From: Microcaldota archaeon
Lineage (GTDB): Archaea; Micrarchaeota; Micrarchaeia; Micrarchaeales; Micrarchaeaceae
Assembly (NCBI GenBank): GCA_021799475.1
Contig: JAJZAJ010000001.1
Span: 62,001-126,000 of the forward strand
Reading direction: 5' to 3'
Length of the DNA stretch: 64,000 nucleotides
This document shows, one piece after another, positions 3,984 through 53,333 of this stretch. Position numbers and translations under genes: made by a program. The notes under the pieces are model-generated. The model saw only the letters and a list, made by a program, of their open reading frames with translations. It was not told the DNA's origin and did not search any database. The stretch's first letter is position 1. Each line of letters begins with the position of its first letter.

Positions 3984-4109
3984 CGCCAGGGTAGGGATTT
4001 GAACCCCAAAGCCCGTAAGGGCACCGGTTCGCCCGTTGCATCACGAAATCAGCTCTCGAGATTTTTAAAATTCGAGACCGGCGCATTAACCAGATTCTGC
4101 CACCCTGGC
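3984..4109 (-). tRNA. tRNA-Ser(CGA) with a 41-nt intron
   Basis: The acceptor stem is GCCAGGG/CCCUGGC with discriminator G. A class II variable arm (GCCC-UUAC-GGGC) and the T-loop UUCAAAU are present. The anticodon stem CCGGU/ACCGG closes a 7-base loop only if 41 bases (about 4030-4070) are removed between positions 37 and 38, the canonical archaeal intron site. The loop then reads CU-CGA-AA, so the tRNA decodes UCG. Splicing would need the archaeal splicing endonuclease. No CCA is encoded. The acceptor stem is identical to that of the second tRNA-Ser at 32015. Confidence 0.9.
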
Positions 4110-4141
4110 ATTCTCCGCAGAATAGTTTCTATTGATGATAT

Positions 4142-4153
4142 ACCTATATATAT
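4142..4153. promoter_or_regulatory. TATA-type promoter between tRNA-Ser and the GT2 gene
   Basis: The run acctatatatat lies about 35 bases behind the 5' end of the minus-strand tRNA and about 60 bases before the plus-strand glycosyltransferase. Its near-palindromic sequence could serve either direction. Motif and spacing only. Confidence 0.45.
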
Positions 4154-4206
4154 GCGTTGTCATAAGTAGTTGCGTTTCACTGTAATGCAATAGGAAACAT
4201 GGGCAC

Positions 4207-5784
4207 GTGGTACTGATGCAGGCTCAAGCTTATGAGGAAGCGGGCTCCCCGGTCAGGGAGTACATAGGCAGACTTCTGACCGTATTCCTATTCCTTATTC
4301 TGTCAATAGCTGGGTTAATATTCTCAGTATACCTATTCTATGTTGCCAACAGCCTTTACATGTTCACGCTGGCTGTCTCGTTCACCGCATTATCCCTTAT
4401 AGCCGGATTCTTCAACGTTTACGCCTCGATATGGTACTTCAGATCGTACTTTTACAAAGGATACCTGAAAAAGATAAATGACAGCCTCAGGCCATTGAAC
4501 AAGCTTCCGTCCGTCGCAATCGTCATGCCGGTATACAACGAGGATCCTGACATGGTAGAGAGAAACATCAAGAGCATAAAGCGCATGAATTACAAGGGAA
4601 AGCTGGAGATATTCGTTGCGGACGATTCAAGCGAGAGGAGTTACAGTAATAGGATAGAGGCAGTATGCAGGAAGCTCGGCATCACCTTCGTGCACAGGGA
4701 TGACAGGAGAGGTTACAAAGCAGGGGCAATCAACAACGTGATAATTAACTGCACAAGGGCCGAGTTCTTTGCCGTTTTCGACGCAGACGAATACCTGGTC
4801 AACAGGAACTTCCTGATGGATCTGCTGCCGTATTTCAACGACAAGAAGATGGCATATATACAGACGGAGAAAAGATATGCAAAAGGGACTTTCTTCTCAG
4901 ACTGTGTCGACATATTCGACGCATTCTTCTTCAAGTTTATACAGCCTGCAAGGGCTCTGGACAACAACGCGATATTTGCGGGCTCATGCGGAGTGATCAG
5001 AAGATCGGCTTTCTTAAAGACCGGAGGCTTTCCGGAATACGTAATAGAGGATACCTTCTTCAGTTTTGAGACGGACATGCACGGCTTCAAGAGCCTTTAT
5101 ATCGAGAAAGTATATGCTCTCGGAAGACCCGTCAAAACATTCACGGAACTGGCGAAGATGCAGTGGCGATATAATTACGGCGACACGCAGTTCATAAGCT
5201 ACTATTTCAAGCGCAAGGGGTATAGGAATAGGAAGACTCCGTTTTCCGTGCCGAACTATGTAACTCACGGGTTCGGGCTTAACTACATTTCTGTGGTGCT
5301 AATATTCTTTACTATAATATCTGTCGGGATAGTTTTCTCGGCTGCACCTTTCGCGCACATAGACCTTTTCACGCTAACACATGGAACATTCAGCCTATAT
5401 CTTGAGCTTCTTGGGTTCTTCGCCTTTACACTTTCTCTCCTGACTCCAGCGCTCCTTACCAAGATATACTTCAAGTCGCTATCTAAGGGCATAATGGTAT
5501 TCCTGCTAAACTATGCGCTTGCATTCGTCAGGACAAAGGCAGCCATAGCAACCTTCCTCGACAGGAATCCGGGAATCCATTGGAACAAACTAAAGTACAG
5601 GGGATTGAGCGGAAATATCCTGTTCTCGCTCAGGAACACTAAGACAGAAGTAGCATTCATGTCAATAATGTTCGGCCTTTCCGCGTTTGCATTCTCCCAA
5701 TATAACATAGCGGGAGGGATGTGGCTCGCATGGTACGGCATACTATATCTTCTTGCGACACTTTTCCTGTATAAGTACGGGTGA
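4207..5784 (+). CDS. Membrane GT2 glycosyltransferase (cellulose-synthase-like, processive type)
   Basis: A 525-residue membrane glycosyltransferase. Two N-terminal transmembrane helices (about 22-75) precede a cytoplasmic GT-A domain. Its signatures are VMPVYNEDPDM, VADDSS (first Asp), FAVFDADEY (DxD), EDTFFS and QWRYNYG, the last a variant of QxxRW. Four or more helices follow. This plan matches BcsA-like synthases that polymerise and export a polysaccharide from nucleotide sugars. The substrate cannot be read from sequence. The frame starts at GTG 4207; ATG 4216 is also possible. Translation probably continues into the DUF424 gene 5 bases downstream. Confidence 0.85.
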   Translation: MVLMQAQAYEEAGSPVREYIGRLLTVFLFLILSIAGLIFSVYLFYVANSLYMFTLAVSFTALSLIAGFFNVYASIWYFRSYFYKGYLKKINDSLRPLNKLPSVAIVMPVYNEDPDMVERNIKSIKRMNYKGKLEIFVADDSSERSYSNRIEAVCRKLGITFVHRDDRRGYKAGAINNVIINCTRAEFFAVFDADEYLVNRNFLMDLLPYFNDKKMAYIQTEKRYAKGTFFSDCVDIFDAFFFKFIQPARALDNNAIFAGSCGVIRRSAFLKTGGFPEYVIEDTFFSFETDMHGFKSLYIEKVYALGRPVKTFTELAKMQWRYNYGDTQFISYYFKRKGYRNRKTPFSVPNYVTHGFGLNYISVVLIFFTIISVGIVFSAAPFAHIDLFTLTHGTFSLYLELLGFFAFTLSLLTPALLTKIYFKSLSKGIMVFLLNYALAFVRTKAAIATFLDRNPGIHWNKLKYRGLSGNILFSLRNTKTEVAFMSIMFGLSAFAFSQYNIAGGMWLAWYGILYLLATLFLYKYG

Positions 5785-5788
5785 CAAA

Positions 5789-6100
5789 ATGTTATACCTT
5801 AAAATACATGATAATGAGCATGGCGCAGTGATAGCCATGTGCGATGAGAACCTGATAGGAAAGGTGCTCGATGACGGGAAACTGCACATCGACCTGAAGC
5901 AATATGCGGGTTTCTACAAAGGAGAGCTTGTGAACAGGAAGAAAGCGCTCGAACTGATGGCTGACGAGAGGATATATTCTGCTAATGTGATCGGAAAGGA
6001 AGCTGTGGAAACAGCAATAGAAGGTAAGGTAATACAGAAGGAAAATGTAAGTATGGTAGATGGTGTGCCATACGCACATGCGTACAAGGTAGACTACTGA
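5789..6100 (+). CDS. DUF424 family archaeal protein
   Basis: A 103-residue protein with the pattern of archaeal DUF424: LYLKIHDNEHGAVIAMCDE, GKVLDDGKLHIDL, FYKGELV and SANVIGKEAVETAIE. The family is widespread in archaea and is suspected to be linked to translation; its biochemical role is unknown to me. It starts 5 bases after the glycosyltransferase stop, with GGGTGA serving as a ribosome-binding site inside that gene's end. Confidence 0.75.
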   Translation: MLYLKIHDNEHGAVIAMCDENLIGKVLDDGKLHIDLKQYAGFYKGELVNRKKALELMADERIYSANVIGKEAVETAIEGKVIQKENVSMVDGVPYAHAYKVDY

Positions 6101-6147
6101 TATATAGGATATATAAGCATGCTCGGAATAATCCTTAATGTGATATA

Positions 6148-7254
6148 ATGGATGCGCCGACAGTACAAATCAGGGAATATCTAGATGGGCTCTTCCATTT
6201 TCCCGAAGCGGCGCTCAGCGCTGAAGAATCAAGGGTTGCGACAGAGGATATTGTAAAGTTCATAGTCAACAGGCTTTTCTCCAGGCAGTTCCGCAGGACC
6301 AAGGTGCATCCTGACACGCAGAAGGATATAGAGGATAAGGTAAAGAAGAGTGTCGAATCTAATAAGCCGATATATCTCGTAATCTGCTTTGGCGGTTACA
6401 AGCATTACTGGAATCCATCATATCCGAACGTTGACTTCGCAGAGCTGTTCAACTTCCACTTCATGGCTGAATGGGTCGCACCAATACTAAAAGTTTACAA
6501 ACCGGGGGTCAACATCGATTACGAATTCGAGAACATAGTTGTCCCGATGGTCGATAATTACCCGAAGCGGGACATTGACATTTATGCTGATAGCTTCAAG
6601 GCGCTGATTGCGGAATATATGACTAGGGCGAAGCCTCCCCAGAACTTCAGGATCAATGCATTCATTCCTCAAGAGCTTGAGGAGTACAGACAAAAGGATT
6701 ACGAGAATAGGCTTTTCAAGAGGATGGAAGAACTTATGCCGAAGAGAGCAGAGGAATGGGCTGGCATATCAGATGATGAAAGGAAGAACAGGCTCCACCG
6801 CACTCCGAAGGCATTCATGTGGAAGGGGGACAAGGACCTTTCCGGCCTAAGCGAAAAGGAGAAGGAAGATATCATGATACGGTCAAAGGAACTGATAGAG
6901 GCGTACTACGAAGCAGACTTCGAACTGAGAGGAGACTACTTTGTAGGCGGCAACCATATCCCTGTACTCCTATCATTCGGACTGAGTGCGGAGAACGTCG
7001 GCCATTGGCTTACGATTACTGCCGCTAAGGGAAGCAACGTTGACTTCTGGGTAGGAAGGGGAATAGTAGAGGCATCGGAGGGCAGGATAGTGCCGCGTAT
7101 AGTGTCGCATAATCAGTATGATGCGTTAAAACAAAAGATCAAAACAACAGAAGGATTCAAATGGGTCGCAGAAGGAAGTCTGCTAAAGAACCTGAAGAGC
7201 ATAGACGTCGTTGCGACAGAGGACTTCAATAGGCTTGTAATCAGCCATTCTTGA
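6148..7254 (+). CDS. Uncharacterised 368-aa protein
   Basis: I do not recognise this protein. It is soluble, with a central alpha/beta region that includes IYLVICFGGYKHYWNP, FAELFNFHFMAEW and KVYKPGVNIDYEF. A charged helical segment (about 190-250) and a C-terminal region with GGNHIPVLLSFGLSAEN follow. The order hydrophobic strand, acidic AE helix, then Y-x-PGV-x-I is loosely like the core of isocyanide synthases (Pvc/DIT1 type), but I would not assign that function. Its own TATA-like box (gatatataagc) lies about 35 bases upstream. It converges on the NAC gene and the two 3' ends overlap by 14 bases. Confidence 0.75.
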   Translation: MDAPTVQIREYLDGLFHFPEAALSAEESRVATEDIVKFIVNRLFSRQFRRTKVHPDTQKDIEDKVKKSVESNKPIYLVICFGGYKHYWNPSYPNVDFAELFNFHFMAEWVAPILKVYKPGVNIDYEFENIVVPMVDNYPKRDIDIYADSFKALIAEYMTRAKPPQNFRINAFIPQELEEYRQKDYENRLFKRMEELMPKRAEEWAGISDDERKNRLHRTPKAFMWKGDKDLSGLSEKEKEDIMIRSKELIEAYYEADFELRGDYFVGGNHIPVLLSFGLSAENVGHWLTITAAKGSNVDFWVGRGIVEASEGRIVPRIVSHNQYDALKQKIKTTEGFKWVAEGSLLKNLKSIDVVATEDFNRLVISHS

Positions 7255-31720: not shown

Positions 31721-31978
31721 CGGCAGATAGGCGGGATGCTAAGGGTATCCCATCCGCAAATCCCTTTTGGCGGGCCAATGCCGCTGCAGTGTTATGAATG
31801 CGCACAGAGCCTGCATCAAAGCGTCGACGCTTTGCCCCAGGTGGTGGCTTCATATGTGAACCAGGCCAGGCCGGAAGGAGCAACCTTAATCATATGGCAG
31901 CCATGCTTCTGGGATACAGGGCTGAGCAGAGGTGCAGTCAACCCTGTGAACATGCATAATGCAAGGCGGCTTCTGCCG
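31721..31978 (+). ncRNA. Signal recognition particle RNA (7S RNA)
   Basis: The helix 8 signature, with the GGAA tetraloop and the asymmetric AGCAAC loop (CAGGCCGGAAGGAGCAAC), lies near 31864-31882. The flanking strands pair to give helix 5. The ends can pair (CGGCAG at 31721-31726, CTGCCG at 31973-31978), as archaeal SRP RNAs close with helix 1. The length of about 258 bases is slightly short for archaea. It has its own TATA box and is followed by a tRNA-Ser gene. Ends are accurate to several bases only. Confidence 0.88.
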
Positions 31979-32014: not shown

Positions 32015-32100
32015 GCCAGGGTCGCCTAGAGGTAGGGCGGCAGCCTGCTAAGCTGTTTAGTCAGAAATGGCTTTCGAGGGTTCGATTCCCTCCCCTGGCG
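32015..32100 (+). tRNA. tRNA-Ser(GCU)
   Basis: An 86-base class II tRNA: acceptor GCCAGGG/CCCUGGC, anticodon stem GCAGC/GCUGU with loop CUGCUAA (anticodon GCU), long variable arm AGUCA-GAAA-UGGCU, T-loop UUCGAUU and discriminator G. No intron and no encoded CCA. It follows the SRP RNA by about 36 bases. Confidence 0.95.
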
Positions 32101-38959: not shown

Positions 38960-41823
38960 ACACAGGTATAATTAGCCTTTAGTAATGGAATGTTCACGAG
39001 TCGCGTGAGCTTCTCGTTTACGCACCCATCCTATCAAAGCGGTCTATTGCCGCCGGCCTAGTGTCTCGTTTCAGGTCTGGCTTCGACCTTAGATGCCTTC
39101 AGGTCTTATCCATATGGCGCGTGGCTACCCGGCAATGCTTTCACAACCGGTACACTAGAGGCGCCGTTCCCCTGTTCCTCTCGTACTATGGGGAACTTAT
39201 CTTCTGACACTAACACTCCCAGTAGATACTACCGTACTGTCTCACGACGTACTTAACGCAGCTCGCGTGGTTTTTTAATGGGCGAGCAGCCCAACCATTG
39301 GTGGCTTATGCACCACCAGGATAAACCGTGGCCATATCGATGTATCAAACCGCGAGGTCGCTGTGGACGCTCACCCGCGACGAATCGGTTACCTCTAGAG
39401 TAACTTGTCTGACAGATTGAAGCCCCATTAAAAGAGCTATCAATGTTCGTTAAGCCCTACTTTCGTATCTGCGCATCACGCTTTTCGATGCACAGTCAGC
39501 CCGGCATTTGCCTTTATGCTTATCAGCGGGTTCCCAACCCGCTTAAGCCGAGCGTTGGTCAATTTCGTTTCCTTATCGAAATCAACCGTCCAGTCTAACT
39601 ATCCACCTGCAGCTGTCCCCTATCGGGTTAGCTGTGCGATGAGGTAAAATTGGTGTTACATTGACGCTCCATCTGGGCCGCAGCCCAAACTTCGACGCTC
39701 CCAATTACGCTATGTATACCACATTACACAACAACTACAGGCTATAGTAAAGTTTCATAGAGACTTCGTTTCCCACTGGGAGATCGTGGCATATTCACCA
39801 CGCAGTGAGTTCACCGGATCCATTGTTGGGACATTGGGACGGTCGTTACGCCATTCATGCAAGTCACCTATTAAGTGACGAGGTATTACGCTACCTCAAG
39901 AGAGTCAGAGTTACTCCCGCTCTTTGCCAGGGCTTACTCCTGTTGAAACAGGTCTTCGCTTACTGGCGGTGAGCAGGCGTCACCCACTGTACTAAGCCTT
40001 TCGGCTTCGCGGTGAGTTGTGTTTTAAATAAACAGTCGCCGTCCCCGTGTTGATGCTATCTGCGCATACCATACGCAGACATGGCTTATCGTTACCTTAC
40101 GCCACTAAAATGCCGAATTCCCTAACTATGGTTACTCCGTCACACCTTGGCTTTTTCAGCCTGCAGCACTTGTACTAGTTCTAGGTACGGTGTAATATGA
40201 TCGTTGCAGATTCCCTTTTCACGGGCTCAGGAACTCATACCAACAGTTCATTTAGCTGTTTCTCCTCATAACGAGACTCCGCAGCCCTTTGCACTTTCTT
40301 GCGGTACTATCCCCAAGCGTCAGAAATCTGCCTTGCGTTGCCGCTCCTACATATCACGGGCAGGAATATTGACCTGCTTCCCTTTCGCCCCAAGGTGATT
40401 GGCCTGGGGCTTAGGATCGCCTAACTCTCCGCTGACGAGCGTTGCGAAGAAACCCGTGTGCTTTCGGTGTATGGGATTCTCACCCATATATGCTGTTACT
40501 AACACCAAGATTTTCACTGCAGCGCGCTCCATATGTGCTTTCGCGCATACTTCGTGGCGCACTGCACGCCTTCTTACCAGATCTTTCGATCTCCGAGGTC
40601 TCGGTACCTAATTTAGCCCCGTATATCGTCGGAAAGGAAGCCCTCAACTGGTACGCTATTACGCGTTTTTTAAAGGATGGCTGCTTCTGAGCCTACCTCC
40701 CAGCTGTCTACGAGCTTCCTCTCCTTTGATCACACTCAATTAGGATTTGGGGACCTTAACCCCGGTCACTATCTTTGCAGTCTCGCGCATCTAGCTTACC
40801 CAAATGCGCCGACTCCTGGGGTCTACGCAGTACATGCATTCGGAGTTTGACAGTTGCGTGGGACCTTTCGATCCCGTCCGCGACAATCGGTCGCTCTACC
40901 GCATGCACAAGCTCGCCCAGAGCTATCCTAAAGATACTTCAGAAGGGACCCGCTATTGCCTCGCTCGATAGGTATATCGCCGCTACTCAAACCTCACCCA
41001 ACAGGACATGCCATGACAGGTTGCGGACCTCCAGCAGGCGTTAGCCTACCTTCGTCCTGGGCTCGAGTAGTTCGCAGAGGCTTCGGGTCGTATAACAGTG
41101 ACTTCGGCATTTTCATACCGTGCGCCTCGCATGCTGCGCGCAATCGCTTTCGCTACGCCTTTCGGCTCGCCACTGCTATACACTCCTTGGCTCTTGCTTC
41201 AAGAAGAATGATGGGACGCTGGTCCACGCACCTCGCTGACACATTTCTATGCTTCGCTTCGGCGCGCTTCGATCCTTTCGCGCCCACACCTTCGTTTTAC
41301 CACCTAGTTTCAGATCTGATTTCACTCCCACGCGTGTGGGATCTTTTCAGCTTTCGCTCGCGCTACTTGTTCACTATCGGTCTGTAGCCAATATTTAGGG
41401 TTGGAGTTTAATGCCCCCATGTTCATTCTGCGTATTTAGGCAGAATTACTCTCTTGCAGCAATCTCCGAAAAGCTTAGCCTACGAGGCTGTCACTCTCTA
41501 TGGCCGCGCTTTCCAACGCGCTCGGCTCACTTTCCGGATAAAACACTGCACCACATCTCCGACCACGTTGCCATGGTGGATTCAGTTTGCCCTCTGTGGG
41601 TTTCACTCGCGTTACTTGCCACATCTCGTTTGATTTCTTCTCCTGCGGGTACTAAGATATTTCAGTTCCCCGCGTATGCCCGCATGCTTGCGCATGCGCA
41701 ATTCGATTATCCCCGGTTCAAAGCCTGACCTGCGGCTACCCGGGGCTTATCGCAGCTTGCCACGATCTTCATCGCTGCTACAGCCAAGCCATCCTCTAGG
41801 TGGTTTGAAGTCTATATCTGTGT
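38960..41823 (-). rRNA. 23S ribosomal RNA
   Basis: Large-subunit rRNA on the minus strand, about 2,860 bases. The 5' part contains GGATGGCTTGGCTGTAGCAG and CGATGAAGATCGTGGCAAGC. Further on, conserved peptidyl-transferase and sarcin-ricin regions are readable (AGTACGAGAGGAACAGGG on the minus strand, near 39171-39190). The ends pair (ACACAG at 41818-41823, CTGTGT at 38960-38965). No large intron is evident. No 16S, 5S or tRNA is attached, so this is a stand-alone transcription unit. Ends are approximate. Confidence 0.93.
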
Positions 41824-44904: not shown

Positions 44905-44929
44905 GAACACCATTCACTGCAGTGGTAAT

Positions 44930-46078
44930 ATGCCTGACAAAACACTCTTGGCGGATCAGCAGAAACTCATGGCACTTATAGAAGAGCTGACTCCAGACGC
45001 GAGAACAACAGCACTGAAAAGAGCAGAAGAGATAGGGCTGCTTCCCGGTAATAAAGCTGCGGTTGCAGAAGAATATGAGAAGAAGGGGCAATATGACGCT
45101 GCCGCAGAAATCTGGGTACAATTAGGTAAGAAAGAGAAGGCAGCGGAAGTATATGAGAAGAATGAGTGGTATGTCTCTGCCGCAGAAATCTGGCTACAAT
45201 TAGGTAATAAAGACAGAGCTGCAGCATGCGCGGAAGCATGTGAGAAGAAGGGACGGTATGTCTCTGCAGCAAAAATCTGGATAGAATTGGATAACAAAGA
45301 AAAGGCAGCGGAAGCATATGAGAAGACGGGAGAGTATGCTTATGCAGCCAAAATCTGGATACAATTAGATAAGAAAGAGAAGGCAGCGGAAGTATATGAG
45401 AAGAATGGAGAGTATGCCAATGCAGCAAAAATCTGGATACAATTAGATAAGAAAGACAGAGCTGCAGCATGCGCGGAAGTATATGAGAAGGAGGGAAGGT
45501 ATTTCGCTGCAGCAGAAATCTGGATACAATTAGATAAGAAAGAGAAGGCAGCGGAAGTATATGAGAAGAATATGAGGTATACCTTAGCAGCAGAAATCTG
45601 GATACAATTAGATAAGAAAGAGAAGGCAGCGGAAGTATATGAGAAGAATGGAGAATATGACGTTGCTGCAAAAATCTGGCTGCAATTAGATAATAAAGTG
45701 AAGGCAGCGGAAGCATATGAGAAGAGGGGATGGTATGCCCCTGCCGCGAAAATCTGGCTACAATTAGATGATAAAGTGAAGGCAGCGGAAGCATATGAGA
45801 AGATGAGAGAGTATTCCAATGCTGCAGAAATCTGGCTGCAATTAGATAAGAAAGACAGAGCTGCAGCATGCGCGGAAGCATATGAGAAAAGGGGACAGTA
45901 TGACGACGCCGCCAAAATCTGGCTACAATTAGATAAGAAAGAGAAGGCAGCGGAAGCATATGAGAAGATGGAGAGGTATTATGATGCCGCAACGATATAC
46001 GAGATGCTGGGAAACGCTCAAAAAGCATCAGCGCTTACGGAACTGTCAAAGATGCTCCGGATTAATTTGCTAAAATAA
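44930..46078 (+). CDS. Tandem helical-repeat (TPR/SEL1-like) protein
   Basis: A 382-residue soluble protein almost wholly built from about a dozen helix-turn-helix repeats. The usual unit is 26 residues, EKAAEVYEKNGEYxxAAKIW followed by (I/L)QLDKK. Some units carry three extra residues (DRAAACAEVYE), giving 29. The N-terminal 45 residues and the last 30 (TIYEMLGNAQKASALTELSK) are unlike the repeats. The consensus A--Y-----Y--AA-IW is TPR-like but shorter than the 34-residue TPR. It probably serves as a protein-binding scaffold; the partner is unknown. Confidence 0.8.
   Translation: MPDKTLLADQQKLMALIEELTPDARTTALKRAEEIGLLPGNKAAVAEEYEKKGQYDAAAEIWVQLGKKEKAAEVYEKNEWYVSAAEIWLQLGNKDRAAACAEACEKKGRYVSAAKIWIELDNKEKAAEAYEKTGEYAYAAKIWIQLDKKEKAAEVYEKNGEYANAAKIWIQLDKKDRAAACAEVYEKEGRYFAAAEIWIQLDKKEKAAEVYEKNMRYTLAAEIWIQLDKKEKAAEVYEKNGEYDVAAKIWLQLDNKVKAAEAYEKRGWYAPAAKIWLQLDDKVKAAEAYEKMREYSNAAEIWLQLDKKDRAAACAEAYEKRGQYDDAAKIWLQLDKKEKAAEAYEKMERYYDAATIYEMLGNAQKASALTELSKMLRINLLK
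45087..45965 (+). repeat. Tandem 78/87-bp DNA repeats within the helical-repeat gene
   Basis: About eleven units of 78 bp (87 bp in the three-residue variant) share long identical stretches such as AAAGAGAAGGCAGCGGAAG and ATCTGGATACAATTAGATAA. The near identity at DNA level, including synonymous sites, points to recent expansion or ongoing homogenisation. Confidence 0.9.
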
Positions 46079-49200: not shown

Positions 49201-51963
49201 TCATGCGGACCAGTACTTCTTCGTCTTTATGAAATTCTTCTGCGCTTCTATCAGATCCATATAAAACATCCTGTCCTCCCTCCTTAGCATCCTCAGCGCC
49301 CTTGCGGCGCTCGCCGGCCCTATCCCGTATGTCGACAGAGCTATGGCTGCCTTCCCGCCGTGAGCCTCGAGCAGGCTCGCTATCTTCATCGCTCCTTTGA
49401 GCTTCGTGATTTCCTGATGGGACAGCTTTGCGCCTTTTGCCCTCTTCGCCACGACGGCGTAGAATTCATCGCTGTCAAACGTAATCATTGGGCTGGAGCA
49501 GCTCGGGCAGTTTATCTTATCCATCCCTTTCAATTCCGACAGCTTTCTCTTGAACCGGAACCCGCAGTAAGTGCAGAGCAGGTTGACGCTTTTAGACATT
49601 GCCTTTGCTATGAACGAATCTATTACGACATCGCTTGGTAGCAACGGCATTATCAGTTCCTTCGTGTAATATGCGGAATCCAATATCGCCTTTGATAGGG
49701 GCGACAGTGACGGGCTCCTTATCCTTTCAATCCTTATTGCTCCTGATTCTATCTTCGATGACATATCCTGCATGGATTTTATGTCGAAATAATTCTGCAT
49801 GAGCTCCCTGATGGTTTCTCTGTGTATAGGGGTGTCCTCAAACAGCTTGAGCAGTCTCTTCGCCAAAGACCTAGATATGGAGGCTTCCTTGTCGACAGCT
49901 CCGAACAGCTTTGCTATGGTTATGAATTTGTACCTGAAGAGCTCCGTGTCCCTGACCGCCTCATAAAGTTTGCCCTCTATCGAAGCAGGCTTGATAGAGC
50001 TGATGATGTGCCGTACATCAGTAGTAAGGTCTCCTCCGGCTTCGACGAATATCATGTATGGAGAGGATTTGACATTGATGCTTTTCCCTGTCTTTGTTAC
50101 AATCTCGTGTGCGATGAGTCTCGAAAGCGCCTCGTTGGCCAGTGTCCCGAGGCCCGTGTACACTATGCTGTACCCGTCACCGTCTTCTATTAGAAGCCTT
50201 CTTCCTGAAGGCATCCCTGACTTGCTTTGTGATTCGGAAAGAAGGGCTATCGACTCTGCGGCATTTCTATCGGTTATGTCATTCCCTGAAGACGGGTTCG
50301 CAAGGAGCTCGAATACCCTGGTAGCGGCTTCCCTGCTTACAGGTATATCTTCTCCTACCCAGTCCGGCACCGCGGCTTCTAGGTCGGTGCTCGGCTCCAC
50401 GCTTATTACGTTGTCATCGATGCTGATTACCCTCCATGGAAGGCCTTTAGTTATGAATACGCTGTTCTCCTCTACGGAATTGACTACGAAAAATTCATCG
50501 AGTGATGATATCGTTCTGTTGTCGACCGCGGTCTTTACGATGTAGCGCTTCCTGTCCGGTATTACACTGAGATGCCCATAGTAATACATTCTCGTCGCAG
50601 GCCCCGAATATATATCTGAACCGTCAAATCCTATGAGCCTTTGCCGGGACATGAACTCGAGCAGATTGTTAAACTCTATAGGATCCATGCTGGAGTATGC
50701 AGGCGATCTTCTTACGATTGCCAGCGCCTCCTCTTTCCTGCATTTTCCCTTGTCGAGTGCGATGCCGCAGAGCTGGTTTGCCAGTACATCGAGCGCGCCG
50801 CGCTGCATATCAAATTTTTCAAGCTGCTTATCTCGTGCGTTCATCGATATTGCGGTTGCTTCCGCCGAATCTATCGCGCTGGTGCATATTATAGATGCGT
50901 TTGGCACTCCCTTTACAGTATGGCCGCTCCTTCCCGCCCTCTGTATTAATCGCAGAGCCTGCCTTGGAGAGCCGTACTGCATTACCATATCTATGCTCCC
51001 TATGTCTATGCCCAGCTCCAGGGAGCTTGTCGCTATTATGCTCTTGAGCTTTCCTTCCTTGAAACGGTTCTCAAGAGATATCCTCTCTTCCTTGTCCAGC
51101 GAGCTGTGATGTACGCCTATTCCGCCAAATGGCGATATGCTGTTCAGGTAAACTAATCTGCTGCCGAGCGCCTCGACTATTTGGCGCGTGTTTGCAAATA
51201 TAAGGGAAGTCTTCGATGTCTTTATATTGCTGGCGATTGCCTCAAGCCTGGCCATGGAGCTTTCGTCAAGACCGAACTTCTCCATCGTCTCGATGTTCTT
51301 GCCTGAACTCTTTGTGGGAAGCTCAACTCTTAGCTTTATGCGCTTCTGGTCGTCTGATGATACCACCGCGCAATCCCTGGCACCGCATAGGAACCTTGAG
51401 ATTGTTTCCGGAACGCCGACAGTTGCGCTGATAGCTATTCTCTGGAAAGATGGAGCGAGCTCTTCCAGCCTTTCCAGTCCCAACGATAGCTGCGCGCCCC
51501 TTTTGTTATAGTAGAGCTCGTGCACTTCGTCTACAACCACAGCTGAAACGCTCCGCAGCGAATCCCTTATTGTTTTCGCCGGAAGTATGCTCTGCAGCGT
51601 CTCCGGTGTTGTTATCAGGACGGATGGCGCAGACCTTGCTTGCCTCGCCCGCTCTTTCGGAAGCGTGTCGCCATGCCTTACTGCTACGCTTATGCCCAAA
51701 GTGGAACATAATTCGCTGAAGCGCTTTACCATATCCCTGTTTAGCGCCCTTAGTGGAGTGATGTAGAGCAGCCTCACTCCGGCGGCGTTGCCCTGCCGTG
51801 AAAGTTTTTCTAATATAGGTATCGTTGCCGCTTCCGTCTTTCCCGAGCCGGTCGGCGCTATTATCACGCAGTTCTTCCCAGATGCGACTATGGGAAATGC
51901 CCTTTTCTGTATATCGGTGAATGAGCCGTATCTCTTTAGAAGAATATCATATGCGCCGGACAT
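49201..51963 (-). CDS. lhr: Lhr-type DEAD/DEAH helicase
   Basis: A 920-residue superfamily 2 helicase of the large-helicase-related group. Walker A IAPTGSGKTEA, TPLRALNRDM (Ia), DEVHELY (II), SATVG (III), THRQ-like region FANTRQIVEAL (IV) and QRAGRSGHT (VI) are visible. The C-terminal part holds the winged helix and Lhr-type domains plus a zinc ribbon (CTYCGFRF, CPSCSSP). ATG 51963 has a better ribosome-binding site (AGTGGT) than ATG 51978. It acts in DNA or RNA strand separation and repair. dtdA lies upstream in the same direction. Confidence 0.92.
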   Translation of the reverse strand: MSGAYDILLKRYGSFTDIQKRAFPIVASGKNCVIIAPTGSGKTEAATIPILEKLSRQGNAAGVRLLYITPLRALNRDMVKRFSELCSTLGISVAVRHGDTLPKERARQARSAPSVLITTPETLQSILPAKTIRDSLRSVSAVVVDEVHELYYNKRGAQLSLGLERLEELAPSFQRIAISATVGVPETISRFLCGARDCAVVSSDDQKRIKLRVELPTKSSGKNIETMEKFGLDESSMARLEAIASNIKTSKTSLIFANTRQIVEALGSRLVYLNSISPFGGIGVHHSSLDKEERISLENRFKEGKLKSIIATSSLELGIDIGSIDMVMQYGSPRQALRLIQRAGRSGHTVKGVPNASIICTSAIDSAEATAISMNARDKQLEKFDMQRGALDVLANQLCGIALDKGKCRKEEALAIVRRSPAYSSMDPIEFNNLLEFMSRQRLIGFDGSDIYSGPATRMYYYGHLSVIPDRKRYIVKTAVDNRTISSLDEFFVVNSVEENSVFITKGLPWRVISIDDNVISVEPSTDLEAAVPDWVGEDIPVSREAATRVFELLANPSSGNDITDRNAAESIALLSESQSKSGMPSGRRLLIEDGDGYSIVYTGLGTLANEALSRLIAHEIVTKTGKSINVKSSPYMIFVEAGGDLTTDVRHIISSIKPASIEGKLYEAVRDTELFRYKFITIAKLFGAVDKEASISRSLAKRLLKLFEDTPIHRETIRELMQNYFDIKSMQDMSSKIESGAIRIERIRSPSLSPLSKAILDSAYYTKELIMPLLPSDVVIDSFIAKAMSKSVNLLCTYCGFRFKRKLSELKGMDKINCPSCSSPMITFDSDEFYAVVAKRAKGAKLSHQEITKLKGAMKIASLLEAHGGKAAIALSTYGIGPASAARALRMLRREDRMFYMDLIEAQKNFIKTKKYWSA

Positions 51964-51987
51964 AATACCACTTGCCATCCTGTCAGA

Positions 51988-52779
51988 TTATATCTTTTCG
52001 TGATCGATGCCTAAGTCATCAAGCACCTTTAACGCCCTCTCCCTGACTGCGCCTGACATGCAGTCCCATTCTATCACAGCAATTTCCGGTTTCGGATTGC
52101 TGCGCTCGTACGCCTGTCTTATCATATCAGTATTCTCTACATAATGCTTTGACATTATGTGGCCGAATGCGTATTTGCCCTGCAGAGCACGCTTCGCAAA
52201 CCTGTCGGCATAGTGCAACCCGCCGATCCCGAGAGCAACCTTGTCGTATTCCGCATCGCAGTCCATCGATTCGATTATTGAGTCGGATACGACTGCAGCA
52301 AGCTCTTTGCTGCTCCTTGCGGGCTCGTTGCCGCCTATCTCAGCGAAGAGTGAGGGGGTCTTTAGAAGGGGGCCGTGGTGCGTTGCTTCATACGTCACTC
52401 CTATCCCGCTTGTATCCTTCTCCTTCATCTTTTTCAGTATGCGCAGCATCGCCTCAGGAGCCGCGACGCTTAGCTGCTTCGGCATCCCCCCAACCCTTGC
52501 CTCGTCTGACCAGTTCCCTTCCGCATGCACAGTATATGATGGTATATTTCTGTTGCTGCTGTGCCTGCTCAGGAATATTATCAGGTCGGTGCTGGTTACG
52601 CTGTCGACGAAATCCGCGGTCACGTTTGGGGTCTTTATCTCGAGCATGCTGATGCTGCCTGCCCTGAACAGCCTGTTGCCATTTACCTTGCGCTCCTCTT
52701 TGGGGGAAATGGCCGACTTTACGGCGTCGGCTATATTCACAGAAGTGGGATCCGTAATGGAATAAACGAGGAGCGGCAT
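51988..52779 (-). CDS. dtdA: D-aminoacyl-tRNA deacylase (DtdA/GEK1 type)
   Basis: A 263-residue archaeal-plant deacylase that frees D-amino acids from mischarged tRNA. DLIIFLSRHSSNRNIPSYTVH, GVTYEATHHGP and ALGIGGLHYADRF, with conserved histidines, are diagnostic for the family. It ends 10 bases before the Lhr gene begins (counting its upstream ATG), so it is likely co-transcribed with it. Confidence 0.93.
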   Translation of the reverse strand: MPLLVYSITDPTSVNIADAVKSAISPKEERKVNGNRLFRAGSISMLEIKTPNVTADFVDSVTSTDLIIFLSRHSSNRNIPSYTVHAEGNWSDEARVGGMPKQLSVAAPEAMLRILKKMKEKDTSGIGVTYEATHHGPLLKTPSLFAEIGGNEPARSSKELAAVVSDSIIESMDCDAEYDKVALGIGGLHYADRFAKRALQGKYAFGHIMSKHYVENTDMIRQAYERSNPKPEIAVIEWDCMSGAVRERALKVLDDLGIDHEKI

Positions 52780-52824
52780 AGGACCAGCAGTAGGTTTTTA
52801 GAGGGCAAAATATATAGCCTATTC

Positions 52825-53139
52825 ATGAAGGAAACAAGGAGATTCTCCAGGAGAGAGGAGGATTTTGTATGCGAGAACTGCGGAGCCAGGGTCAGCGGAA
52901 GCGGTTATACAGACCACTGCCCTGAATGCCTGTTCAGCAGGCACGTTGACAACAACCCGGGAGATAGGAAATCAAGCTGCAGGGGAATGATGGAGCCTAC
53001 GAATGCGGTGATGGAGAGAGGATATTTCATTATATACTACAGGTGCCTTAAGTGCGGGATGGAGAAACGTGTCAAGGCGGCACAGAATGACAATGAAGAG
53101 CTGTTGCAGATGTTTTCCGATATGAATATGCGGGAATGA
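52825..53139 (+). CDS. RNHCP-domain zinc-binding protein
   Basis: A 104-residue protein of the RNHCP family. CENCGARV, then TDHCPECLFSRHVDNNPGD with C-RGMM-P, and the C-terminal CLKCG give at least six cysteines/histidines for zinc. The family is widespread, and its function is unknown to me. ATG at 52825 is supported by a TATA-like tatatag just upstream; the longer frame overlaps dtdA antisense. Confidence 0.8.
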   Translation: MKETRRFSRREEDFVCENCGARVSGSGYTDHCPECLFSRHVDNNPGDRKSSCRGMMEPTNAVMERGYFIIYYRCLKCGMEKRVKAAQNDNEELLQMFSDMNMRE

Positions 53140-53333
53140 TTTATTTGACATATATGTACGTCGCTATTTCTGCGCGCGTTGGCTTCGACCATCCCGCTTC
53201 TTGCGCTCAGCATGCACAGTTGATGTCCCTCTCTTCCGGTTTTCCGCCGGTGCCGCTGATGGCTGCTGTACATGCCGGTATATGGCATATGATGAGTTGC
53301 CCTTATCCTCTCGAAAAGAAAACGGTTTTTAGA

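What the first reader, a model, noticed from the sequence alone, without database searches (positions are those of the whole stretch)
44930..46078. Scaffold of near-identical 26/29-residue repeats
About eleven repeats are nearly identical at DNA level, with long shared strings at synonymous sites. This implies recent expansion. The 26-residue unit is shorter than TPR (34) or SEL1 (36). The 29-residue variant inserts the same three residues each time, at roughly every third or fourth unit, hinting at a higher-order period.
Basis: seen in the sequence. Interest (0 to 1): 0.55.

Follow-up and report, generated by a model that had tools for sequence, protein, structure and literature searches.

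The report
Six-gene family of short helical-repeat proteins
A small archaeon carries six related genes built from 7 to 16 copies of the same 26- or 29-residue helical unit, probably long flexible binding scaffolds that grew by recent copying and swapping of the unit.

Summary
The repeat array is real. ORF 44930-46078 encodes a short N-cap, exactly 11 units (eight of 26, three of 29 residues) and a C-cap. "Near-identical" is too strong: units average 81% DNA and 69% protein identity, but synonymous codons match at 86% against 43% expected, so expansion is recent.

The main new fact lies outside the window. The same 0.81-Mb archaeal genome holds five more genes of this family (7, 9, 12, 13 and 16 units). 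All share N-cap, C-cap, a TATA-like box and a palindrome (CACTGCAGTG; TACTGCAGTG in two) just before the ATG. Among 301 genomes of the phylum, only six others gave weak single matches at the cut-off used.

AlphaFold2 from the single sequence gives a confident (pLDDT 91.6) chain of 10-residue helices every 13 residues: a compact TPR-like alpha-solenoid, nearest by profile to Gemin5/IFT-type TPRs, not canonical 34-residue TPR or 36-residue SEL1. Variation concentrates at columns 12, 24, 26, 28 and 29, mostly the A-B turn and start of helix B.

Best reading: cytosolic protein-binding scaffolds, co-regulated, remodelled by recombination; the partner is unknown. The proposed 3-4-unit super-period fails; a weak 5-unit signal exists. 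A diversity-generating retroelement in the genome appears unrelated.

The parts
44930..46078 (+). repeat-protein gene, 382 aa, ATG start, TAA stop
   Evidence: five intact paralogs in the same genome
44892..44902 (+). TATA-like box TATATATTATA, at the same place in all six paralogs
   Evidence: promoter role inferred
44915..44924 (.). 10-bp palindrome CACTGCAGTG (TACTGCAGTG in paralogs C and D), candidate operator
   Evidence: 6 of 6 paralogs; elsewhere in the genome only two sites, each with 3 mismatches to the 18-base pattern; role inferred
44930..45100 (+). N-terminal cap (57 aa: two cap helices plus the first helix A)
   Evidence: conserved in six paralogs; helices predicted
45101..45178 (+). 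unit 1, 26 aa
45179..45265 (+). unit 2, 29 aa (long type)
45266..45343 (+). unit 3, 26 aa
45344..45421 (+). unit 4, 26 aa
45422..45508 (+). unit 5, 29 aa (long type)
45509..45586 (+). unit 6, 26 aa
45587..45664 (+). unit 7, 26 aa
45665..45742 (+). unit 8, 26 aa
45743..45820 (+). unit 9, 26 aa
45821..45907 (+). unit 10, 29 aa (long type)
45908..45985 (+). unit 11, 26 aa
45986..46078 (+). C-terminal cap (30 aa) and stop, conserved in the paralogs

Best explanation
The gene is one of six co-regulated paralogs for cytosolic TPR-like alpha-solenoids. Each unit is two antiparallel 10-residue helices with 3-residue turns; the 29-residue type has three more residues in its first helix. The arrays were built recently, by tandem duplication of one or more units and by exchange of units within and between the six genes, so each gene now has its own length and order of units. 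The proteins most likely act as protein-binding scaffolds or adaptors. The conserved residues make the solenoid; the variable columns, mostly in the A-B turn and the start of helix B, are the likeliest contact surface. Shown: array, paralogs, conserved upstream block, synonymous similarity, mixed unit ancestry. Predicted: the fold. Inferred: cytosolic location, binding role, co-regulation.
For: Six intact genes with common caps. 7 to 16 units per gene, 68 in all. Codon identity 0.86 within the gene against 0.43 expected. Units whose best match lies in the same gene: 0.40 against 0.16 for shuffled labels, so most best matches lie in other genes. 97 of 105 pairs of third-position biallelic sites show all four combinations. 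Visible block copies: E13-E14 and E15-E16 at 97% and 93%, C7-C8 at 98%. The N-cap of W and A differs little at silent sites (pS 0.030) although the arrays have 11 and 7 units. Fold: mean pLDDT 91.6, ten-residue helices. Profiles: PF23774 TPR_GEMI5 at 70.5 bits (cut-off 33) in the window protein, and matched by 6 of 6 members; PDB profile hits to IFT144, IFT122, WDR35 and WDR19. dN/dS across units 0.35, so the protein is under constraint.
Against: No partner, expression or location data. The fold is a single-sequence prediction (pTM 0.64). The six genes have unrelated neighbours, so context names no pathway. Repeats can be miscounted in assembly. Four-gamete patterns can also arise by recurrent mutation. 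Whole-protein profile scores of repeat proteins are inflated: clearly irrelevant families such as zf-CHCC also pass.
Confidence: 0.62

Rival explanations
1. The solenoids bind nucleic acid, like PPR or TALE repeats, with the variable columns 24, 26, 28 and 29 reading a sequence, one unit per base.
For: Regular short helical units with a few hypervariable columns at fixed places; the best Pfam family is named after Gemin5, an RNA-binding protein.
Against: Four of six proteins have a pI below 6; no PPR, OPR or TALE profile matched; the TPR-like part of Gemin5 is its dimerisation module, not its RNA site (passages of PMC8989681).
Confidence: 0.1
2. A diversity-generating retroelement (DGR) writes the variable codons: they look like NNC or NNG columns, and the genome has one reverse transcriptase.
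For: Column 26 varies at bases 1 and 2 with G at base 3 in 62 of 66 units; column 28 has C at base 3 in 55 of 66. The genome carries a DGR-like locus.
Against: Its template matches its own target (all 17 mismatches at template adenines); short-word BLAST shows no significant match between any of the six genes and that locus; the whole-genome search found no unit-like template outside the six genes; only one RT match was found.
Confidence: 0.03
3. The arrays are selfish or neutral repeat growth: units spread by slippage and conversion and the proteins have little function.
For: Patchy presence, variable unit number, fast turnover.
Against: Six of six frames are intact, unit lengths always keep the frame, dN/dS is 0.35, structural columns are nearly invariant, and the short upstream block is kept in all six although flanks differ.
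Confidence: 0.13
4. Host-facing repertoire: the family is exported or delivered into a partner cell, and its variety tracks partner surfaces.
For: The genome is small and probably DPANN, a group often dependent on hosts (literature; not tested here); lineage-specific expansion.
Against: The printed N-terminus shows no obvious signal peptide or membrane helix (by inspection); no secretion gene is consistently adjacent.
Confidence: 0.12

Closest known systems
Gemin5 TPR-like dimerisation domain (PF23774; PDB 6rnq)
   Same: Best Pfam family (70.5 bits, 6 of 6 members); structural match Z 12.3, 6.0 A over 203 residues; palisade of short antiparallel helices.
   Different: No WD40 part; regular 26/29 unit repeated up to 16 times; no evidence of dimerisation; Z under about 13 is not strong for helical repeats.
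IFT-A TPR solenoids (IFT144, IFT122, WDR35, WDR19)
   Same: Only PDB chains found by sequence profile (7 sequences, best 1.4e-08); A..YE..G.Y..AA.IW pattern.
   Different: Eukaryotic, fused to WD40, irregular repeats.
Canonical TPR and SEL1 repeats
   Same: Two-helix units in an alpha-solenoid; Foldseek and VIA-align rank OGT, LGN and SEL1 chains high.
Single divergent homologue in one species of the same genus (L009:911-1846, 311 aa)
   Same: N-cap and C-cap motifs alignable by eye and similar helical pattern.
   Different: Single copy with degenerate repeats and none of the conserved upstream block.

Membership tests
Canonical TPR | 34-residue unit | tested here: not met
   units are 26 or 29, two of 68 are 27
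Canonical TPR | two antiparallel helices per unit in a solenoid | tested here: met
   helix list of the model; packing seen only through structure matches; prediction only
Canonical TPR | Pfam TPR model above its cut-off | tested here: inconclusive
   TPR_7 33.5 against 27.9 and TPR_2 27.1 against 27, but scores sum over repeats and unrelated families also pass
SEL1 | 36-residue unit | tested here: not met
   unit lengths; no SEL1 profile listed
Gemin5/IFT-type TPR-like solenoid | profile match above cut-off | tested here: met
   PF23774 70.5 against 33 for the window protein; 6 of 6 members match at E <= 0.01
Gemin5/IFT-type TPR-like solenoid | WD40 propeller in the same protein | tested here: not met
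   no WD40 hit; only a 57-aa cap before the array
Gemin5/IFT-type TPR-like solenoid | dimerisation or complex assembly | not testable with these tools
   needs biochemistry
DGR target protein | template repeat like the variable region, differing at adenines | tested here: not met
   no template for the units; the genome's DGR has its own target

The most novel reading that the evidence does not exclude
A symbiotic archaeon with a very small genome keeps a co-regulated repertoire of natural consensus-like mini-solenoids (13 residues per helix), whose units are swapped between six loci so that a variable edge is recombined, with long units placed about once per five units to set the superhelix: a modular recognition system with no described counterpart.
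Probability: 0.15. Interest if true: 0.72.

Novelty: new variant of a known kind. Interest (0 to 1): 0.45.

Why it matters
Repeat proteins are thought to grow by copying short pieces, but most have diverged too far to watch it. Here 68 related units in six genes of one genome preserve the steps: block copies, two unit types, mixed ancestry between genes. The regular 13-residue helix unit, predicted confidently from one sequence, is also a candidate for a very compact natural repeat scaffold.

Tried and rejected
Higher-order 3- or 4-unit period: rejected. Lag 5 pooled over six genes: 29 matches against 19.6 expected, P = 0.003 for the best of lags 1-8; mostly gene E (10 against 5.1); without E, P = 0.04 uncorrected; DNA identity at offset 5 is not raised within unit types, so it is not a recent 5-unit duplication. 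Left as a weak lead.

Positive selection at variable columns: suggestive only. In W, pN at the five columns is 1.80 times overall pS (1.35-2.46), but silent changes are also raised in those columns; in 17 disjoint closest pairs the ratio (four columns) to overall pS is 1.54 (0.93-2.38) and to local pS 0.80. B and D show no clear excess. The same five columns are the most variable whichever gene is left out; they were chosen on pooled data. Not claimed.

RNA hairpin before the ATG: fold not better than shuffles (z 0.39). With the TATA-like box so close, the start would be nearly leaderless (rule recalled), so a DNA operator is likelier. The promoter and terminator scan of the region found nothing telling (bacterial-type consensus).

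DGR acting on the family: rejected, see rivals. Viral origin: a scan of viral contigs found no relative. Defence system: no PADLOC hit for the window protein. PHROG and NCBIfam hits of the window protein are short and judged chance. A scan of named genomes with two short peptide patterns found one Chloroflexi protein with a 41%-identical short stretch; own or very near records may be left out there. Folds of canonical TPR chains rank high in Foldseek and VIA-align, but with large rmsd.

Print: searches (Micrarchaeota/ARMAN with tetratricopeptide) gave 0 papers; others listed nothing that, by title and start of abstract, describes this family. Only the open-licence PMC library was searched.

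Rows dropped: two 27-residue units (D10, E10) of 68 were left out of unit statistics.

Full report
What is there. The window is G000:C3:62001-126000, an archaeal genome of 814,392 bases in 3 contigs, completeness 95.28; the 23S rRNA in the window is archaeal. ORF 44930-46078 encodes 382 residues: 57 residues before the first unit, 11 units, 30 residues after the last. Each unit has the form AAxIWLQLDNKxxA(AAC)AEAYEKxGxYxx; it is itself two 13-residue halves, each with AAxx(W/Y). The 29-residue type adds three residues in the first helix, here together with a K-D-R context, and its three copies share a 25-nt string exactly. Long units are thus copies of one another, not three separate insertions.

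More than chance. Self-identity is 0.61-0.64 at the lags of 78 and 243 bases against a maximum of 0.36 in 1000 codon shuffles. Within the gene, identical residues use the same codon in 0.861 of cases against 0.428 expected from four neighbouring genes. The units are alike but not near-identical: mean 0.81 at DNA and 0.69 at protein level.

The family. A search of the same genome finds five more genes, which I call A to E (W is the window gene): L025:4606-5442, L025:5784-6809, L026:5262-6518, L027:4826-6151 and L028:4398-5972 (minus strand), with 278, 341, 418, 441 and 524 residues and 7, 9, 12, 13 and 16 units. All six begin MPDKT (E could also start 16 codons earlier), end in a common cap and have intact frames. 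The orders of long (L) and short (S) units differ: W SLSSLSSSSLS, A LLSSSLS, B LLLSLLLLL, C LLLLSSLLSSSL, D SSLSLLSLS(27)SSL, E LSSLSLSSL(27)LLSLSL. By silent sites in the first 45 codons there are two groups, {W, A, E} and {B, C, D}: pS 0.03-0.12 within and 0.17-0.24 between.

How it changed. 0.40 of 66 units have their best DNA match in the same gene, against 0.16 for shuffled labels (maximum 0.33 of 5000), and 0.79 in the same group. W units match best in E in 6.5 of 11 cases and in W in 3.2 (ties shared). Variable sites are mixed: 97 of 105 pairs of third-position biallelic sites show all four combinations, and association falls from r2 0.13 at 1-5 bases to 0.02 beyond 30. Clear block copies exist in E (units 13-14 and 15-16) and in C (7 and 8). 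Silent divergence between the caps of W and A is 0.03, yet their arrays differ in number and order; so arrays turn over faster than, or the 5' ends have been homogenised since, the gene duplications. This is inference.

Upstream. In all six genes the last 40 or so bases before ATG are conserved: a TATA-like box, a GAACACC-like stretch, and a palindrome CACTGCAGTG or TACTGCAGTG followed by GTAAT-ATG. In E the similarity starts at about the TATA-like box. The 18-base pattern occurs 8 times in the genome at up to 3 mismatches: the six genes at 0-1 and two others at 3; the reversed control gave 0. A shared operator is the natural reading, but recent duplication alone could also keep it.

Distribution. 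Protein search: 2 of 40 relatives match at E <= 0.001 (G002, G014; 41 genomes with its own). With the six-gene profile 6 of 300 other genomes of the phylum match at E <= 1e-8, each once and weakly. The homologue of G002 used as query found, in 164 genomes of the order, itself, the six genes and one weak hit. The helicase gene downstream of the window gene was found in 3 of 13 other species of the genus; in these 3 loci no repeat gene lies next to it, and in 2 of 3 the presenilin-like gene follows it as here. So the window copy is probably an addition at this place in this lineage. Many of these genomes are incomplete.

Fold. AlphaFold2 without an alignment: mean pLDDT 91.6, pTM 0.64; four of five models have mean pLDDT 89-92, one is poor (57). 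Helices of 10 residues, 13 in the long units, separated mostly by 3. Foldseek and VIA-align give TPR-like and SEL1-like solenoids; Gemin5 6rnq aligns over 203 residues at 6.0 A (Z 12.3), gamma-SNAP over 143 at 3.5 A (Z 10.3). Such Z values are common for helical repeats. By sequence profile the only PDB matches at E <= 0.01 are IFT-A solenoids. I conclude: works like a TPR-type solenoid, but the unit length excludes canonical TPR and SEL1.

Variable columns. Columns 24, 26, 28, 29 and 12 carry most variation; they map mainly to the A-B turn and the start of helix B, while the B-A turn (LDNK) is conserved. That asymmetry suggests one edge as the contact surface. Tests for positive selection are mixed and I do not claim it.

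Function. Acidic pI in W, B, D and E (4.9-5.8), 6.6 in A and 8.4 in C, no signal sequence by inspection, no catalytic domain: a protein-binding scaffold or adaptor is the best reading. The neighbours differ at each locus (by my reading of the ORFs: PCNA-like, ribosomal protein L3-like, NuoD-like and pilin-like genes; helicase and presenilin-like genes in the window by Pfam).

Literature. Read: passages of PMC8975820, PMC4304861, PMC8989681 and PMC5498576 and the abstract of PMC1553488, which reports that repeats often grow by several units at a time and in the middle of the array. PMC4304861 reports TPR proteins in 80.73% (88 of 109) of archaeal species, so TPR in an archaeon is ordinary; a six-gene family of such similar units is what looks unusual. 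PMC8975820 has no occurrence of TPR, and PMC5498576 none of TPR or tetratricopeptide. Searches listed no description of this family.

Limits. No sister strain, no expression data, assembly not checked against reads, fold predicted only.

Noticed in passing
L073:4097-6231 (G000:C1, about 51096-53230): A diversity-generating-retroelement-like locus: target ORF 4097-4750, a 102-nt repeat at 4483-4584 and 4989-5090 with 17 mismatches, all at adenines of the second copy, and a reverse transcriptase read in two overlapping frames 5097-5555 and 5503-6231. The split may be an error or a broken gene.
   Followed up: partly
44976-46028, minus strand: A 350-aa open frame runs antisense through the repeat gene; similar antisense frames lie in the paralogs. 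Probably a by-product of codon make-up.
   Followed up: no
31722-31977, plus strand: Rfam calls a bacterial large SRP RNA just above its cut-off (63.4 against 60) in an archaeal genome, next to a tRNA at 32015-32100.
   Followed up: no
3984-4109, minus strand: A tRNA match spans 126 bases, which suggests an intron.
   Followed up: no
38963-41820, minus strand: A 23S rRNA gene with no 16S match in the window: the rRNA genes seem unlinked.
   Followed up: no
L027:2664-3548, L028:6241-7182, L028:8944-9846: Three ORFs share SAMEYLMTYGWAILIIAVVLGVLFQLGVFSG near their starts, like pilin signal segments (recalled); they lie near repeat genes D and E.
   Followed up: no
six-gene family: Long units recur at lag 5 more than expected (P = 0.003 over lags 1-8), without raised DNA identity at that offset.
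   Followed up: partly
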